This document shows positions 10,200 to 47,140 of a stretch of 64,000 nt of DNA, one piece after another. Under the pieces are notes generated by a model. That model was not told the origin of the DNA. It saw only the letters and a list, made by a program, of their open reading frames with translations, and did no database searches. The DNA comes from Mycolicibacterium sp. (GTDB taxonomy: Bacteria > Actinomycetota > Actinomycetes > Mycobacteriales > Mycobacteriaceae): assembly GCA_020637165.1 (NCBI GenBank), contig JACJWN010000003.1, positions 186,001-250,000 on the forward strand. Reading direction: 5' to 3'. The number at the start of each line of letters is the position of its first letter. The stretch's first letter is position 1. Position numbers and translations under genes: made by a program.

Positions 10200-11255
<1,056 letters not shown>

Positions 11256-11364: not shown

Positions 11365-12786
11365 CTACTGCGGAGTATCCAGGCCAACCGTGGCGTCATG
11401 CGCGGCGGCAACCTCGCGCGTCCGCTCGCGGCGCTCGTCGATCGCCTGGCTGAGATCCTGCAGCAGGTCTGGCTTGCGAAACACCAAGTGCTCCAAGGTA
11501 TCGCGATCGACGCGCAGAACCGTGACCTCGCCGACCGCGTAGCCGTTGCCCATGACGGGTTCGCGGGTAAGGGCGGTCTGGCCGAGGAAGTCGCCCTCGT
11601 GCAGAGTGGCGACGGGCAGGTACTCGCCGTTACTGCCACCGACGACCATGCGAACGCGGCCCTTGATCACGAAGGACATTTTGGTCGGCACCTCGCCGCT
11701 GCGCTGCATCACCTCCTCGGAGCCGAAACGCACGATGTCGACCTTGGGCAGCAGGGTTTCCAGTTCCGTGCTGCTCGCCCGCAGGATCGGGGCGATCTTG
11801 CGCAGCGCCTCGGCGCGCCGGGCCGGGGTCGAGAAATCGTCCTCCAGGTTGTCGAGCCGGAGGCCGGCGCGGCGGGACGCGTACCAGAGCCAGCGCCGGA
11901 AGGTCGACTGTGCGGCGACGCCGTCGGCGGGGGAGCGCAGCGGGATGCTCACCGTGTAATCGGTGCTGGAAGTCGCATTGGCCACCGGGCGGCCGTCCGG
12001 ATGGACCTGCGGCAGATCCAGTGCGGTCTCGCTCAGCAGTGTGCAGACCGCATCCGGCGCATCAGTGCCGGCGAACTTGACGTCCACGGTGATGGTGTGG
12101 CCGCCGGCAGGTCGGCTGAGATTGGAAAACGCCTGACCGGCCAGTACCGAGTTGGGGATGATCTCCAGTCCGCTGCCGGTGTTGATGTGCGTGGCCCGCC
12201 AGTTGACTTCAACCACCCGGCCGCTGGCCGAGGTGGTCTTCACCCAGTCTCCGAGCTGGAACGGCTGCTCGAACAGGAGCAACAGCCCGGAGATGATCTG
12301 GCCGACCGAGTTCTGCAACGTCAGGCCCAGCACGATGGAACTGATGCCCAGGGCGGTGAAGAGACCACCGACGTTGGCGCCCCACACGTAAGCGAAGATC
12401 ATCGCCACCCCGACGGCGATGATGCCGAACCGGGCCACGTCGATGAAGATCGACGGCATCCGGCGCCGCCAACTGCCGGCCGGGGCGCTGTCGAAGACCG
12501 TGGCGCTGACACCGGACAACACCATGATCAGCACGAGAATGCCGAACACCGTCGCGAGCAGCCGAACCCCGGTGGTCTCCACCGAGATCGACGTGGTCTT
12601 GAACATCAGCAGAAGCAGTGCTCCCAACGGTACGACGTAGCTCCGCAGCAGCCCGACCGGTTTGGCCAGGAAGTTTCCGCGCCGGCTCAGCGACTGCTGC
12701 AGCTCGGTCAGCACTACCAGCAGCGTCGGCAGTCCGACGGCGATGATCACCGACCAGTAGAACCACGGCGCCCCGAGGACACTCAT
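11365..12786 (-). CDS. MscS-family mechanosensitive channel with C-terminal cyclic-nucleotide-binding-like domain
   Basis: Membrane protein of 473 residues resembling M. tuberculosis Rv2434c. Four hydrophobic segments occupy about residues 5-150. The MscS pore/beta domain follows with ALGISSIVLGLTLQNSVGQI and SGLLLLFEQPFQLGDWV, GRVVEVNWRATHI and IIPNSVLAGQAF. A cNMP-binding fold covers about 330-450 (MSFVIKGRVRMVVGG, FLGQTALT). In the phosphate-binding cassette the usual GE...R is replaced: LGQTAL, then PVMGNGYAV with no Arg. Binding of cAMP in the usual way is therefore doubtful. Its ATG overlaps the stop of the upstream cyclase gene (ATGA), so the two are translationally coupled. The likely role is ion or osmolyte efflux gated by tension and by a signal from the partner. 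Confidence 0.88.
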   Translation of the reverse strand: MSVLGAPWFYWSVIIAVGLPTLLVVLTELQQSLSRRGNFLAKPVGLLRSYVVPLGALLLLMFKTTSISVETTGVRLLATVFGILVLIMVLSGVSATVFDSAPAGSWRRRMPSIFIDVARFGIIAVGVAMIFAYVWGANVGGLFTALGISSIVLGLTLQNSVGQIISGLLLLFEQPFQLGDWVKTTSASGRVVEVNWRATHINTGSGLEIIPNSVLAGQAFSNLSRPAGGHTITVDVKFAGTDAPDAVCTLLSETALDLPQVHPDGRPVANATSSTDYTVSIPLRSPADGVAAQSTFRRWLWYASRRAGLRLDNLEDDFSTPARRAEALRKIAPILRASSTELETLLPKVDIVRFGSEEVMQRSGEVPTKMSFVIKGRVRMVVGGSNGEYLPVATLHEGDFLGQTALTREPVMGNGYAVGEVTVLRVDRDTLEHLVFRKPDLLQDLSQAIDERRERTREVAAAHDATVGLDTPQ

Positions 12787-15002
12787 CGCTGGTCCTCCGA
12801 CAGCCGCCACGCCGGTTCCTCGTGATCGTCGACGGTGATGGCACCGGCCGGCGCGTACTGCCGGGTGTCGCGGGTGACTTCGTAGACCTTCTGGGTGACG
12901 TAGACACCGGGTTGTGCCGCTCCGCGCCGAATCGACGATGCCAGGTGCACCGCCCCGCCCCAGAGGTCGTAGACGAGGCCGGCCCGTCCGATCAGTCCGC
13001 TGGTGACCGCCCCTGTGTCAATACCCGCACGCAACCGGATGTTGTGCCCGGTCTCGGCGTTGAACCGGCTGACGATGCGCTGCATGTCGAGGGCGAAATC
13101 GACCGTGCGGTGAATGTTGTCCAGCCGTGGCACCGTGAGTCCGCAGCTGGCCAGATACCCGTTGTGGGTGTTGCGCACCCGCTCGACACCGTGGGTCTCG
13201 GCCGCGGCGTCGAACTGGTGCACGAGCTTGTTGATGACCTCCAGTGACTTTTCGGCGTCAAGGTCTCCGGACAACTCGTCCAGGCCGATCAGGTCGGCGT
13301 AGAGGACGGTGACATCCTGGTGGTCCTCGGCGATGCTCTGCTCGCCGCCGCGATACCGCTGGACCACTTTCTCCGGCATCAACGACAACAGCAACCGATC
13401 GTTCTCCTGCTGCTGCTGGGTCAGTAACTGGTCCTTGATCGCCAGGCTTCTGCTCATCTCGTTGAATGCCACCGTGAGGTCGCCGAACTCGTCGCCGGAG
13501 GCCACCGGCAGCGTCACGTCATAGTCGCCGGTGCTGATCTTCTCGGCTCCGGCCTCGAGCCGCTTGATCGGACGTACGAACAATTTGGCCCACACCATCG
13601 CCAACAGACAGGCCACGAAGATGACTAGGACGGTGGCGCGAACCAGGCGATGACCGAACGCAGACTCGGGCGCGAAAGCCTCCCCGGAGTCGATCGAGGC
13701 GATGATGACCCAGTCCAGGCCCTTCAGATTCAGTGGGGCGTAGGCATGCAGGGCCCGGCGGCCGAGGTAGTTGGTGGCGATCAAGGTGCCGGTCTCACCC
13801 CGTCGCGCGGCCTCGGTGGCTTTGGTGCCGACCGGCTGTATGAGAACGGTCGTGCCTTCCTTGATCGCCCTGTCGGCCACCTCCGGCGGCGTCCCGGCGG
13901 CGATGACCTCGCGGCGGTAGGCCTCAGGGTCTTCGAGGAACAACCGGGAGTCCGAGCGCATCAGATTGTCGGGGCCGACCACGAAAGTCTCCCCGGTGCG
14001 TCCCATCCCCGCCTGCTCCCAGCCGCGGTTGTCGGTAACCAGGTTGGTGATGATGGACGCCGGGTAGCCGACCGCCAACACGCCCGTCGCCCGGCCGGGT
14101 GCACCGATCGGAACCAGAATCCAGGCCATCGGCTGGGGCGAGGGCAGATAGTCGGCGAAGTCGGTGCTGGCGACATAGTCGACGTCGTTGGATGCCATCG
14201 CCCTGCGGAAGGCATCCGGAAGGTATCCCTCGCCGCGGTAGGGGCCGGTGAGGACGTTCATCCCCAACTCGACACCCTTGTCTGCGCTGTAGACGACATC
14301 GCCCACGGCGTTGATCAGGAACACGTCGATGAACCCCGCTCCGCGGGCGACGTCTCGGAAGTACTTGTTGTAGCGGGCGTTGGCCTCAGACCAGGCGCTG
14401 CCGTCACCCGCGTCGTCCACCTCGACGGCCTTCTTGGCCTCCGGGAAGGGGACGGTGTAGGTGGCCTGCAGGTACCGGGCGGCGTTCGAGGTGGGCATCA
14501 GGGCGGTGACGTCGACGCCGTTCTCGGCCGCCTCGGCGAACCGGCGGTCATAGAAGTCGGTGAGCGACTTACTCTGCGCCGGGGTGATGGTGGCATCGGA
14601 GAGCTCACCGAAGCCCGCGTCGAACGCCCTGAGGGCCTCACTCAGGGTGCTCCCGCGGGACAATATCTGCATTGAACCCCGCAGATCGGACAACCCGAGC
14701 TCGAGCACTTGGGACTGAGCCTGCCGAATGCCGGTCAGGCGCTCGAACACCGCGGCCCGCAGGGAGGTTCGGCCGGACTCGAATCCGATGCCGCCCGCGA
14801 CAGCGGTGGCCAGGATTGTCATCGCCAACAGCATCAGCATCAGCTTGGACTGGATGCTGACCCGATCGAACAGGCTGCGCTTGGCCTTGCGGCGTCGCAA
14901 CTTCTCGGCCAGCGGCGACCGCGCGTGCGGCGCCTTGGGGTTTTCGGGCCCCATGGGGTCGGGCACTGTCGGGTCCTCGGCGGTCTCTTGCGGTGCCGAC
15001 AT
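12783..15002 (-). CDS. Cache-HAMP class III nucleotidyl cyclase homologue with degenerate active site (Rv2435c type)
   Basis: Receptor-type cyclase of 739 residues. TM1 is at about 51-72; an extracytoplasmic double-Cache sensor covers roughly 75-440; TM2 is near 447-468; a HAMP linker runs about 470-520 (FVRPIKRLEAGAEKISTGDY); a helix QQQQENDRLLLSLMP follows; and a class III cyclase domain spans about 560-730. The first metal Asp is present (VLYADLIGLDELS), but the second is Asn (VRNTHNGYLASCG where families have GD). The transition-state Asn/Arg region YDxWGDxVNxAxR reads YDLWGGAVHLASSIR. cAMP synthesis by the homodimer is therefore uncertain. AAAGGAA precedes the ATG. It overlaps the MscS/CNBD gene by four bases. 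Confidence 0.88.
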   Translation of the reverse strand: MSAPQETAEDPTVPDPMGPENPKAPHARSPLAEKLRRRKAKRSLFDRVSIQSKLMLMLLAMTILATAVAGGIGFESGRTSLRAAVFERLTGIRQAQSQVLELGLSDLRGSMQILSRGSTLSEALRAFDAGFGELSDATITPAQSKSLTDFYDRRFAEAAENGVDVTALMPTSNAARYLQATYTVPFPEAKKAVEVDDAGDGSAWSEANARYNKYFRDVARGAGFIDVFLINAVGDVVYSADKGVELGMNVLTGPYRGEGYLPDAFRRAMASNDVDYVASTDFADYLPSPQPMAWILVPIGAPGRATGVLAVGYPASIITNLVTDNRGWEQAGMGRTGETFVVGPDNLMRSDSRLFLEDPEAYRREVIAAGTPPEVADRAIKEGTTVLIQPVGTKATEAARRGETGTLIATNYLGRRALHAYAPLNLKGLDWVIIASIDSGEAFAPESAFGHRLVRATVLVIFVACLLAMVWAKLFVRPIKRLEAGAEKISTGDYDVTLPVASGDEFGDLTVAFNEMSRSLAIKDQLLTQQQQENDRLLLSLMPEKVVQRYRGGEQSIAEDHQDVTVLYADLIGLDELSGDLDAEKSLEVINKLVHQFDAAAETHGVERVRNTHNGYLASCGLTVPRLDNIHRTVDFALDMQRIVSRFNAETGHNIRLRAGIDTGAVTSGLIGRAGLVYDLWGGAVHLASSIRRGAAQPGVYVTQKVYEVTRDTRQYAPAGAITVDDHEEPAWRLSEDQR

Positions 15003-15036: not shown

Positions 15037-15486
15037 TTGTCCGATGTGCGGGATCCGTACGACGTGCGGCGCTTCGTCGAAGCTCAGGACGGCTGCTACG
15101 AGCAGGTGTGCGACGAACTGCGGTCCGGACGCAAACTGGGCCACTGGATCTGGTTCATCTTCCCGCAGTTGAGTGGCCTGGGCAGCAGTCCGACCGCGCT
15201 GCGTTACGGAATCAGTTCGCTGGCCGAAGCCCGGGCTTACCTGGCTCACCCGGTTCTGGGCCCACGGTTGCGGGAGTGCGCCCGGTTGCTCAGCCATATC
15301 CGGGGCCGCTCGATAACGGAGATCCTCGGCTGGCCCGATGACCTCAAGGTGCGCTCGTCGATGACGCTGTTCGCGGCGGCGGCCGACTCCGCTGCCAAGT
15401 CTCGCACCGATTTCCAGGCCGTGCTGGACAAGTATTACGAAGGCCGGCCGGACACCCGGACGCTGCAGATGCTCAACGCGGGCTGA
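15037..15486 (+). CDS. DUF1810 family protein
   Basis: Soluble protein of 149 residues with the DUF1810 signature: DPYDVRRFVEAQDGCYEQV, GHWIWFIFPQLSGLG, then LAHPVLGPRLRECARLL, DDLKVRSSMTLFAAAA and YYEGRPDTRTLQML. No biochemical function is established for the family. The TTG at 15037 is preceded by GCGAGGG and was chosen; a GTG at 15046 is also plausible. It is divergent from the cyclase gene with only 34 bp between starts, so the two promoters must overlap the coding regions. Its 3' end overlaps the convergent alpha-amylase gene by 14 bp. Confidence 0.85.
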   Translation: MSDVRDPYDVRRFVEAQDGCYEQVCDELRSGRKLGHWIWFIFPQLSGLGSSPTALRYGISSLAEARAYLAHPVLGPRLRECARLLSHIRGRSITEILGWPDDLKVRSSMTLFAAAADSAAKSRTDFQAVLDKYYEGRPDTRTLQMLNAG

Positions 15487-16795
15487 GCACCAGCCAGCCG
15501 TGCGGTGGCACCACCACGGCTTCGACCATCTCCGGCGGGGGAGCGCCCGCACCCGCCAGGATCTCAGCGGGAGCCCCGTAGAGTTCGGTCACCGGCAACG
15601 GCATCGGGGAGTCGTCGATGTTGAGCGCCACGATCAGCGCGTGCTCGCCGCAGTGGCTGCGGTAGACGTAGCCCCGATTGTCCAGGCGAAGAGTCTCGGT
15701 CCGGGCCTCGTGCAGCCACGGATGCCGACGGCGCAACCCGATCAGATGGCGATGCAGGTTCAGCCAATCGCCGGCGGCCCCGTCGGTGCTCGCCGGCGGG
15801 GCGCCGAACTCGGGCCGCACCGCGTCGTCGCCGCCGGCGCGGTCCTCCTTGACGCCGCGGTACCCGAGTTCGTCACCGGCATAGATGGTGGGAACGCCGC
15901 CGACGGTGAACAACGTCACCAGGGCGTGGCCGAGGTGCTCCGGATCCGCCAACTTGCTGGCGATGCGGGTGACGTCATGGTTTCCGACGAAGGTCAGTGG
16001 CGCGAAGGTGTCGAGAAATCCGTTGTGCCGCCGCAGCGCCCAGTCCAATTCGTGGAAGTTGCCGTCGTTGAGGCTGCTCCAGATCGCCTTCCACAGTTCG
16101 TACTGGGTCACCGAGTCCGCGCTCGAGGCCTCGACGAACGCGCTGTAGTCACCGTGAATCATCTCGGCGACGAACCAGGCGTCCGGAAACTCCCGGCGGA
16201 CCCGCGGAAGCACTGCGGCCCAGAATGAATCCGGGACGGCATAGGCGGCGTCCAGGCGCCATCCGGCGGCGCCGCGGCCGAGCCAGTGCGTCATCACCTC
16301 GACGGTGTAGTCGGCGACGTGCGGATTGCGGTGGTTGAGTGTGACCAGGTCGGCATGGCCCTCGAAAGTGTGGAAGCGTCCTGGTCGGCCGCGGAACCAT
16401 CTTGCGGCGTCCTCACCGTCGCCCTCGACCGCATCGCGGTACCGGGGAAAATCGGGGCCGACGTGGTTGAAGACCCCGTCCAGCAGCACCCGAAGACCGC
16501 GCCGACGCGCCTCGTCGACGAGCCGGTCGAAATCGGCGTCATCGCCCAACCGTGGGTCGATCCGGAAGTGATCGGTGGTGTCGTAGCCGTGGGTACGCGC
16601 GGCGAACACCGGCCCCAGGGCGATCCCCGAGACGCCGAGTTCGACGGCGTGGTCGAGCCAGTCGACCAACCGAGCCAACCGATGCTCGGCCAGGGCGGGT
16701 GGTGTGGCGGACGGGAAGGCGCCGACGAATCCGAGGGGATAGACCTGCCACCAGATCGCGTGGCGCACCCAGTCCGGCCCATTTGATCCCGGCAC
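15473..16795 (-). CDS. GH13 alpha-amylase family glycosidase
   Basis: Glycoside hydrolase family 13 enzyme of 440 residues with a (beta/alpha)8 barrel. It opens with HAIWWQVYPLGFVGAF. The family motifs are LLDGVFNHVG (region I), GWRLDAAYAV with nucleophile Asp (II), WFVAEMIHGDY with acid/base Glu (III), and FVGNHDVTR with the transition-state Asp (IV), followed by VGGVPTIYAGDELGY. No signal peptide is seen, so it should act in the cytoplasm on glycogen-, maltose- or trehalose-type glucans. The GTG start at 16795 is preceded by TACAGT 8 nt away, fitting a leaderless transcript. The in-frame upstream extension runs through repeats and an opposing gene and is not used. Confidence 0.86.
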   Translation of the reverse strand: MPGSNGPDWVRHAIWWQVYPLGFVGAFPSATPPALAEHRLARLVDWLDHAVELGVSGIALGPVFAARTHGYDTTDHFRIDPRLGDDADFDRLVDEARRRGLRVLLDGVFNHVGPDFPRYRDAVEGDGEDAARWFRGRPGRFHTFEGHADLVTLNHRNPHVADYTVEVMTHWLGRGAAGWRLDAAYAVPDSFWAAVLPRVRREFPDAWFVAEMIHGDYSAFVEASSADSVTQYELWKAIWSSLNDGNFHELDWALRRHNGFLDTFAPLTFVGNHDVTRIASKLADPEHLGHALVTLFTVGGVPTIYAGDELGYRGVKEDRAGGDDAVRPEFGAPPASTDGAAGDWLNLHRHLIGLRRRHPWLHEARTETLRLDNRGYVYRSHCGEHALIVALNIDDSPMPLPVTELYGAPAEILAGAGAPPPEMVEAVVVPPHGWLVLSPR

Positions 16796-16824
16796 GGTTG
16801 CCCACTGTACGCAGTGGCCGGGCA

Positions 16825-16869
16825 CCGATGGATCCGGTACCGATGGACCCCGTACCGATGGACACCGTC
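16825..16869. repeat. Three 15-bp direct repeats upstream of the thioesterase gene
   Basis: Three adjacent 15-bp units with consensus ccgatggayccggta (16825-16839, 16840-16854, 16855-16869) lie in the short divergent promoter region between the amylase and the thioesterase. The third copy is more diverged at its 3' end. Expansion here would alter promoter spacing. Confidence 0.8.
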
Positions 16870-16894
16870 GCTGGCATCGTGTTCTAGTGCAGGA

Positions 16895-45868: not shown

Positions 45869-47140
45869 ATGAGCGCGCGCGCAGGAATCCTGGTGACCGG
45901 GACCGAGGTGCTGACCGGCCGGGTCGCCGACCGCAACGGTCCGTGGGTGGCCGATCGGCTGCTCGAGCTGGGCGTCGAGTTGGCCCACCTCACGATCTGC
46001 GGAGACCGTTTCGCCGATATCGAGGCCCAGTTGAGGTTTCTGCGCTCCGAGGGTGTGGACCTGATCGTGACGACCGGCGGCCTCGGTCCGACCGCCGACG
46101 ATATGACCGTCGCCGCGGTCGCCAGCTTCTGTGGTCTCGAACTCGTGCTGGACGAGGCGATGGAGGCCAGGATCGGCGAGATCGTGGCCAGATGGATGGC
46201 TCGTTTCCCGGACGTCGACGCCGAGGCGCTCCGCGCCGCCAATCGCAAACAGGCGATGGTGCCCGTCGGCGCCGAGGTGCTCGATCCGGTCGGAACCGCG
46301 CCCGGTGTGGTCGTGCCAGGTGAACCCACGGTGGTGGTGCTCCCGGGGCCGCCCAAGGAATTGCAGGGGATGTGGGCGGCGGCGGTGTCCGCCGACGCGG
46401 TGCGGCAGGCCCTGGCCGGACGCACGGTGTACCGGCAGGAGACCGTCCTGATGTTCGGGGTGGCGGAGTCGGGCCTGGCCGAAACGCTGCGCGAGGCAGA
46501 ACGGCTGGTGACCGGTTTCGAAGAGCTGGAGATCACCACCTGTCTGCGGCGGGGCGAACTCGAGGTGGTCACCCGCTACGAACCCGGCGGGGAGCCGACT
46601 TACCGCTCGCTGCTGGAACTCCTGCGGCAGCGGCACGGCGCCGCGATCTTCTCCGAGGACGGCTCGGGAATCGATGAACAGGTGGCCGGGCTGCTGGCGG
46701 GCCGGCGGATCGCCACCGCGGAATCGTGTACCGCGGGGATGCTGGCCGCGCGGCTGGCCGACCGGCCGGGTTCGTCCGCCTACCTCGTCGGCGGGGTGGT
46801 CGCCTACGCCAACGAGGCGAAGGTGGCCCTGCTCGGTGTGGATGCCGCGCTGATCGCCGAGCACGGGGCCGTGTCGGCCGAGGTTGCCGAGGCGATGGCA
46901 GCCGGGGCATTGCGTCGGTTCGACGCCGACACCGCGGTCGCCATCACCGGGGTGGCCGGGCCCGGCGGCGGCACCGAGGACAAGCCGGTAGGCACGGTGT
47001 GGTTCTGCTTGGCGCTGAGCGACGGACAGGCGGTGACCCGGTGTGTCCGGGTACCGGGCGGGCGCGCCGATGTCAGGGAACGCTCGACAACGGTGGCGAT
47101 GCACATGCTGCGCCGCGCGCTGACCGGCGCCACACCCTGA
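45869..47140 (+). CDS. cinA: Competence/damage-inducible protein CinA homologue (nicotinamide-nucleotide amidohydrolase)
   Basis: Two-domain protein of 423 residues. Residues 1-170 form a MoCF-biosynthesis domain ([51 protein letters not shown]) with ADP-ribose/NMN pyrophosphatase-like function in the family. Residues about 265-420 form the CinA C-terminal PncC-type NMN deamidase ([54 protein letters not shown]). In mycobacteria CinA is linked to NAD recycling and tolerance of NAD-adduct drugs such as isoniazid; katG, which activates isoniazid, is 8 kb downstream as in H37Rv. The start is leaderless-type. Confidence 0.93.

What the first reader, a model, noticed from the sequence alone, without database searches (positions are those of the whole stretch)
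11365..15002. Coupled Cache-HAMP pseudo-cyclase and MscS channel with an atypical cyclic-nucleotide domain
Seen: a receptor-type class III cyclase gene overlaps (ATGA) an MscS channel gene with a C-terminal cNMP-binding fold. The cyclase keeps only the first metal Asp (YADLIG). The second is Asn (THNGYL), and the transition-state region reads WGGAVHLASS rather than WGDxVNxAxR. The channel's phosphate-binding cassette also lacks the GE and Arg that hold cAMP (LGQTAL, PVMGNGYAV). Known: H37Rv has a similar pair, Rv2435c/Rv2434c. Inference: both members have lost canonical cAMP chemistry together. The pair may be a signalling unit in which an extracytoplasmic ligand is passed to a tension channel by protein contact or another nucleotide.
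Basis: partly seen in the sequence, partly recalled or inferred. Interest (0 to 1): 0.82.

Follow-up and report, generated by a model that had tools for sequence, protein, structure and literature searches.

The report
Dead cyclase receptor paired with channel
Mycobacteria and some related bacteria carry a two-gene unit in which a surface receptor that looks like a cAMP-making enzyme, but lacks parts needed to make cAMP, is found beside an ion-channel gene, which suggests that the receptor talks to the channel in some other way.

Summary
The window encodes a dCache-HAMP-cyclase-fold receptor (12783-15002, -) and a YnaI-like MscS channel with a C-terminal cyclic-nucleotide-binding fold (CNBD; 11365-12786, -), overlapping by ATGA. 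The substitutions are old family traits. Of 154 distinct channel-linked cyclase domains none has the complete catalytic set. Controls: the 30 best orthologues of the genome's own canonical cyclase are invariant at six catalytic positions; eight unlinked actinobacterial cyclases and two full-length Sinorhizobium relatives are canonical. The CNBD glutamate survives in 1 of 149 channels. Receptor and channel occur in the same 50 of 60 genomes of the genus and the same 19 of 150 of a second family. In 139 measured pairs they overlap or lie within 65 bases. Two other classes carry cyclase-channel-cyclase triples. Low dN/dS argues against decay. Best reading: a receptor-operated channel whose receptor is a pseudo-cyclase. 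Direct contact is inferred, not shown; my coevolution test had no power. Correction: unlinked MscS-CNBD channels also lack the canonical Arg, so only the Glu loss is specific. Kind: new variant of MscS-CNBD (bCNG-like) channels.

The parts
12783..15002 (-). dCache-HAMP-cyclase-fold receptor gene (pseudo-cyclase), 739 aa
   Evidence: 154 distinct linked cyclase domains
11365..12786 (-). MscS/YnaI-type channel gene with C-terminal CNBD, 473 aa
12783..12786 (-). ATGA start/stop overlap of the two genes
   Evidence: in 139 related pairs the median distance is -4 bases (range -8 to 65) and 59 have the same 4-base overlap, taking the nearest start codon before the first conserved Trp
13683..14795 (-). 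probable extracytoplasmic double-Cache sensor, about residues 70-440, between two long helices that hold the membrane spans
   Evidence: PF02743 41.8 bits, below the cut-off of 45; model helices 50-116 and 444-489
13443..13586 (-). HAMP domain, residues 473-520
   Evidence: PF00672 55.1 bits; low model confidence in this part
12861..13331 (-). class III cyclase fold, residues 558-714, catalytically incomplete
   Evidence: PF00211 100.9 bits; fold matches 5o5l and Rv1625c 4p2f
13293..13295 (-). D570, first metal Asp, kept here (Asp in 120 of 154 linked domains)
13161..13175 (-). R610 (for Lys) to N614 (for the second metal Asp)
12933..12968 (-). D679 kept (adenine Asp); H686 and S690 replace the transition-state Asn and Arg
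12268..12768 (-). channel membrane helices, including the pore helix (model helices from residue 7 to 173)
12112..12312 (-). MscS beta-domain, residues 159-225
   Evidence: PF00924 66.6 bits
11479..11733 (-). CNBD, residues 352-436
11536..11583 (-). non-canonical phosphate-binding cassette, residues 402-417 (GQTALTRE...)
   Evidence: Glu in 1 of 149 channels; R408 in 139 of 149

Best explanation
The two genes encode a receptor-operated channel. A dCache-like domain outside the membrane senses a ligand that is not yet known. HAMP and the following helix relay this to a dimer of cyclase folds that no longer makes a cyclic nucleotide. The cyclase folds then change the state of the CNBD-like collar of a YnaI-type MscS channel made from the next gene, most likely by touching it. 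Shown here: the architecture, the constant gene pairing, the family-wide lack of a complete catalytic set, the near-complete loss of the CNBD glutamate, and purifying selection. Inferred: lack of activity, membrane topology, ligand sensing, physical contact and gating.
For: Co-occurrence: cyclase and channel in the same 50 of 60 genomes of the window's genus, both missing from the same 10, and in the same 19 of 150 genomes of a second family. Of 155 distinct channels, 150 have the cyclase beside them by script; 3 of the other 5 lie at contig ends and 2 are misses of the script that searches show to be paired. In 139 measured pairs the gap is -8 to 65 bases, median -4. All six catalytic positions canonical in 0 of 154 linked domains; both metal Asp in 3 of 154. 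Controls: six positions invariant in 30 of 30 canonical orthologues (the best 30 of 62 places, own copy included); unlinked full-length relatives P0003 and P0004 canonical, with no channel in the 14 kb held around each; the eight unlinked actinobacterial catalytic domains found read canonical at the printed motifs. In the pseudo family the former Asn and Arg positions drift (median ranks 108 and 133 of 170). dN/dS in the cyclase domain 0.10-0.15 and in the CNBD 0.11-0.23 against four near relatives. In two other classes the same channel lies between two cyclases; all four first and all five second cyclases read there lack D1, Asn and Arg.
Against: No direct sign of contact: cyclase-CNBD mutual information does not exceed the dCache-CNBD control, and the test cannot tell intra- from inter-protein pairs. 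No ORF held matches both models, so no fused form was seen (there was no search made for fusions alone). R610 and D679 stay conserved in the Mycobacterium-like rows, so the pocket may still bind a nucleotide; over all 77 rows D679 ranks only 46 of 170. Some members come near to canonical: L086 (D2, Asn, Arg and the CNBD Glu kept; D1 is Glu and the Lys is Gln), L161 (D1, D2 and Asn kept, Arg lost), L024 (Asn lost). Arg stands next to the expected cassette place (column 414) in 14 of 149 channels, none of them with the Glu. Residue loss is not proof of inactivity.
Confidence: 0.5

Rival explanations
1. The channel's CNBD binds cAMP made by other cyclases, or a nucleoside or another nucleotide; the pseudo-cyclase only modulates this.
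Against: The phosphate-cassette Glu is absent in 148 of 149. The exact co-occurrence with the receptor is not explained if the ligand comes from elsewhere.
Confidence: 0.22
2. The cyclase is still active with unusual chemistry and makes a local cyclic nucleotide for the neighbouring channel.
For: D570, D679 and R658 are kept. Some mycobacterial cyclases with substituted substrate residues are active (recalled, not looked up). MSMEG_3578, which PMC3961136 pairs with Rv2435, is still listed as an adenylyl cyclase gene (PMC7739888, passage).
Against: The Asn and Arg positions drift, and the metal positions vary. Lineages differ in what they lost: D1 in all nine cyclases of the triple loci, mostly D2 (with D1 in some) in the rest.
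Confidence: 0.1
3. The pseudo-cyclase forms a heterodimer with an active cyclase encoded elsewhere and regulates that enzyme.
For: Class III domains work as dimers (recalled). Loci of two other classes hold two cyclase genes around the channel.
Against: In the triples neither partner could supply a full site: none of the nine has D1, Asn or Arg. It does not explain the tie to the channel. A Cya-like cyclase was not found in G055, which is 99% complete and holds two pairs, though other cyclases may be there.
Confidence: 0.1
4. Two drifting or decaying genes kept together only by operon inheritance.
For: In G046 one copy has both genes broken (L151).
Against: dN/dS about 0.1-0.2 between near relatives and persistence across several classes.
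Confidence: 0.03

Closest known systems
bCNG channels (MscS-superfamily channels with a C-terminal CNBD; Caldwell 2010 and Malcolm 2012, seen only as reference entries in PMC4560390; their content is recalled)
   Same: MscS pore and beta-domain followed by a CNBD
   Different: Phosphate cassette without the GE glutamate; a receptor gene constantly beside it; cAMP gating not known
Receptor-type class III adenylyl cyclases with dCache-HAMP (Sinorhizobium plasmid proteins P0003 and P0004; 34.5% and 33.8% identity over 89% of the query)
   Same: Whole architecture and order of domains
   Different: Those read canonical at all catalytic positions and keep a downstream KGKGK segment; no channel found in the DNA held beside them
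Rv2435c/Rv2434c of M. tuberculosis and MSMEG_3578 of M. smegmatis
   Same: Rv2435c is described as an adenylate cyclase with a double Cache domain (PMC4822843, passage); the reverse primer for MSMEG_3578 printed in PMC3961136 reads LHNGYL on its complement when I translate it by hand
   Different: Sequences of these genes were not compared here
YnaI, low-conductance MscS homologue
   Same: Best Foldseek match 9h95_A, E 1.2e-12; extra membrane helices before the pore
   Different: YnaI has no CNBD (recalled)
KCNH/EAG channels whose CNBD homologue does not use cyclic nucleotides (recalled)
   Same: A CNBD fold used as a regulatory module without cAMP
   Different: Unrelated pore; no receptor encoded beside it

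Membership tests
Class III nucleotide cyclase (active) | Class III fold | tested here: met
   PF00211 100.9 bits; 5o5l TMt 0.84
Class III nucleotide cyclase (active) | Both metal-binding Asp | tested here: not met
   D570 kept, second is N614
Class III nucleotide cyclase (active) | Transition-state Asn and Arg | tested here: not met
   H686 and S690
Class III nucleotide cyclase (active) | Substrate Lys/Asp pair of adenylyl cyclases | tested here: not met
   Lys is R610; Asp D679 kept
Class III nucleotide cyclase (active) | cNMP synthesis | not testable with these tools
   needs an assay
dCache_1 sensor | Pfam dCache_1 above cut-off | tested here: inconclusive
   41.8 bits against 45; Sinorhizobium relative 45.5
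bCNG (MscS-CNBD channel) | MscS beta-domain plus C-terminal CNBD | tested here: met
   PF00924 and PF00027 above cut-offs
bCNG (MscS-CNBD channel) | Canonical phosphate cassette (Glu and Arg) | tested here: not met
   neither present here; Glu in 1 of 149 family channels
bCNG (MscS-CNBD channel) | Gating by cyclic nucleotide | not testable with these tools
   needs electrophysiology
MscS mechanosensitive channel | Gating by membrane tension | not testable with these tools
   fold only

The most novel reading that the evidence does not exclude
A bacterial ligand-gated channel made of two separate proteins: a dCache receptor whose dead cyclase domain, once an enzyme, now works as a lever that binds the CNBD homologue of an MscS-type channel and opens or closes it without any second messenger. 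Adjacency of enzyme and CNBD effector was kept while cAMP was cut out of the circuit.
Probability: 0.35. Interest if true: 0.8.

Novelty: new variant of a known kind. Interest (0 to 1): 0.6.

Why it matters
If right, a protein still listed as an adenylyl cyclase in mycobacteria (MSMEG_3578 in PMC7739888, passage) is not one, and counts of mycobacterial cyclases would drop by at least one per genome that has the pair. It would also add a receptor-operated member to the MscS superfamily and give a case in which a second-messenger pathway was replaced by another link while gene neighbourhood and folds stayed. The claim is directly testable in laboratory strains.

Tried and rejected

Recent decay of the pair: not supported, dN/dS about 0.1-0.2. 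Single copies do decay: in G046, L151 has both genes in pieces and L153 has the cyclase in pieces beside an unbroken channel.

Active heterodimer of the two cyclases in the triples: rejected on residues.

Order of events: the tree of 35 rows puts the first cyclases of triples, the second ones and the Sinorhizobium pair each together, but the fork that places the canonical Sinorhizobium pair is not starred (94/92) and several end branches are long. Whether catalysis was lost once or more than once is open.

Wider gene neighbourhood: neighbours beyond the pair are shared by many Mycobacterium loci; I saw no third gene that follows the pair, but made no full test.

Literature: ten searches. Among the listings and the passages opened, none described the pair as a receptor-channel unit; most listed papers were not opened. 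PMC2447327 (2004) holds Rv2435c 10 times and Rv2434c 3 times by the listing, but only its abstract and references are held for reading, so it may already note the neighbourhood and the missing residues. Seen: PMC2447327 outline with abstract; PMC3961136, PMC4822843, PMC3938503, PMC11205783, PMC7739888 and PMC10066036 passages; PMC4560390 and PMC3386975 reference entries; PMC9433096 a find without hits; the rest search listings.

Rows dropped: one search uses cyclase hits that cover the catalytic domain and are not identical in their last 250 residues; one search uses 149 of 155 channels (those reaching the CNBD end); one search keeps 140 pairs with both genes full length; one search measures 139 of the 140 alignment rows (one row is the window itself). 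Near-copies remain among 'distinct' rows. Alignments A3 and A4 for the models hold 98 and 77 chosen rows of these. Of 213 plasmid records with a channel match five were fetched and four read; of 23 with a cyclase match two were read.

Caveat: in the L004-like paralogues (L004, L148, L154, L155, L156) one residue is inserted beside the second metal position, so that column is unsure; they have Gln for D1 and Ala for the adenine Asp in any case. Weak matches of the channel profile (under 22 bits) beside unlinked cyclases lie in other reading frames over the cyclase genes and were not taken as channels.
Full report

The substitutions are real and are family traits. I gathered relatives from species genomes (stretches in 30, 40, 42, 43). 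In the 98 paired loci (own locus included) the motif that should read K..GD.Y mostly reads R..HNGYLASCG or close to it; the second metal position is Asp in 4. Over 154 distinct linked cyclase domains: first metal position D in 120, E in 16, other in 18; second metal position N in 108, D in 11, other in 35; Lys position R in 142, K in 4; transition-state Asn N in 55; Arg R in 42; adenine Asp D in 144. None of 154 has all six, none has D1, D2, N and R together, and 3 have both metal Asp. Nearest to canonical are L161 (Arg lost), L024 (Asn lost) and L086 (D1 is Glu, Lys is Gln).

Controls. The 30 best of 62 places found with the genome's own canonical Cya-like cyclase, in the same genus, are invariant at the six positions. 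Eight unlinked actinobacterial cyclases found by the full-length profile match it in the catalytic part only and read canonical at the motifs printed; their loci hold about 1.5 kb on each side. The closest unlinked relatives with the whole dCache-HAMP-cyclase architecture that I found lie on Sinorhizobium plasmids (23 plasmid records matched; two read, 34.5% and 33.8% identity over 89% of the query). Both read canonical, and no channel of this family is encoded in the 14 kb held around each. In 246 genomes of the phylum every match that covered most of the model lay in a channel locus, except one G211 piece on another contig of a genome that also has a channel locus cut by a contig start; the other matches covered the catalytic part only, or in one case (L248) the sensor part.

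Selection. Against four near relatives dN/dS is 0.10-0.15 in the cyclase domain, 0.11-0.17 in dCache and 0.11-0.23 in the CNBD. In samples of 30 rows from the first 62 of alignment A4 the former Asn and Arg rank 108 and 133 of 170 for conservation, D1 and D2 73 and 65, R610 38 and D679 8 (medians). In the whole 77-row alignment D1, D2, Asn and Arg rank 101, 91, 100 and 125, D679 46, and W681, G682 and R610 are among the nine most conserved columns. The canonical set ranks these positions 13 to 39 of 170, but it is less diverged (62-79% identity) than the pseudo set (42-91%), so the comparison is rough. The picture is a protein that kept its fold and lost constraint on catalysis.

The channel domain. 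In 149 channels the phosphate-cassette Glu is present once (L086); the usual sequence is G-[QL]-T-[AT]-L-T-R-[EQ], with R408 in 139, and E358 and G376 in 149. An Arg stands at column 414, beside the expected place, in 14 of 149, and none of these has the Glu. Four unlinked MscS-CNBD channels from rhizobial and Caballeronia plasmids, read out of 213 records, keep the Glu but none has an Arg where the cAMP-binding one should be, by eye; no cyclase of this family lies in the 11 kb held around each. So the Glu loss goes with the linked family; the Arg loss does not discriminate.

The pairing. Cyclase and channel are in the same 50 of 60 genomes of the genus and missing from the same 10. In a second family they are in the same 19 of 150. 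Over the phylum the channel profile matched 20 of 396 genomes at the chosen limit, and the weakest of these matches cover only part of the profile. Of 155 distinct channels in held DNA the script found a neighbouring cyclase for 150 (one of them, L132, only downstream, at a contig start); L049, L078 and L221 end at contig borders, L105 is paired, and L177 lies at the place of L194, which is paired. In 139 measured pairs the distance is -8 to 65 bases, median -4, and 59 show a 4-base overlap; the start codon was taken as the nearest one before the first conserved Trp. No ORF held matches both models.

Deeper relatives. Four genomes of two other classes (G363, G143; G090, G754) carry cyclase-channel-cyclase on one strand; G211 has the channel and the second cyclase at a contig start and a cyclase piece on another contig. 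All four first cyclases lack D1, Asn and Arg and keep the Lys, and three keep D2; all five second cyclases read lack D1, Asn, Arg, the Lys and the adenine Asp. The tree groups first, second and outgroup cyclases apart; where the canonical Sinorhizobium enzymes attach is unresolved.

How it may work. From the domain types both C-terminal domains should face the cytoplasm. A receptor signal could pass from dCache through HAMP to the cyclase-fold dimer and from there to the CNBD of the channel. Contact is the simplest link once cyclic-nucleotide chemistry is gone on both sides, but it is an inference. My attempt to detect it by coevolution failed for lack of power. A ligand other than cAMP in the CNBD remains a serious rival: a CNBD protein that holds guanosine is known (6hyq title), and R610 and, in Mycobacterium-like rows, D679 of the pseudo-cyclase stay conserved.

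What is known. The held passages treat Rv2435c and MSMEG_3578 as adenylate cyclases (PMC3961136, PMC4822843, PMC7739888). A 2024 paper calls Rv2434c a possible membrane protein in cAMP signalling (PMC11205783, passage). The 2004 survey PMC2447327 names both genes, but its body could not be read. MscS channels with a CNBD are known as bCNG. I therefore file this as a new variant of a known kind, with the family-wide pseudo-cyclase link as the new part as far as ten searches of this library show.

One search was made to verify the counts; it raised the unlinked canonical controls from six to eight, gave the residues of all nine triple cyclases, and replaced a loose '98 of 98' by the counts above.

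Noticed in passing
L150 (G000:C23:129249-132763), about 53 kb before the window on the same contig: A second, diverged pair in the same genome: cyclase 42% and channel 39% identical to the window pair, also non-canonical (Q for the first Asp, A for the adenine Asp).
   Followed up: partly
L108 3357-5877 (cyanobacterial MAG): A Tll0287-like sensor with a weak HAMP match (21.9 bits, cut-off 25) and no output domain (295 aa) lies 22 bases upstream of an MscS-CNBD channel gene that keeps the GE glutamate. This may be an independent receptor-plus-channel pair in which the receptor stops at HAMP. Only one locus seen.
   Followed up: partly
L138, L139, L140, L199: Cyclase-channel-cyclase triples on one strand in two classes outside that of Mycobacterium.
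   Followed up: yes
L151 and L153 (G046): Copies in which the cyclase is in several ORFs; in L151 the neighbouring channel is broken too, in L153 it is in one ORF.
   Followed up: no
window 10200-11240 (-) and 15473-16885 (-): Downstream a gene that looks by eye like an antigen-85 mycolyltransferase and upstream one that looks like an alpha-amylase; each has a match in 47 of 69 relative loci (L039-L107).
   Followed up: partly
window 46845-46939 (+): ARAGORN calls a 95-base tRNA-Pro with anticodon AGG, long for tRNA-Pro; may be a false call.
   Followed up: no
PMC10066036 passage: A phage-resistant M. smegmatis isolate carried D113G in MSMEG_3578 together with an lsr2 mutation and one other; probably incidental.
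   Followed up: no
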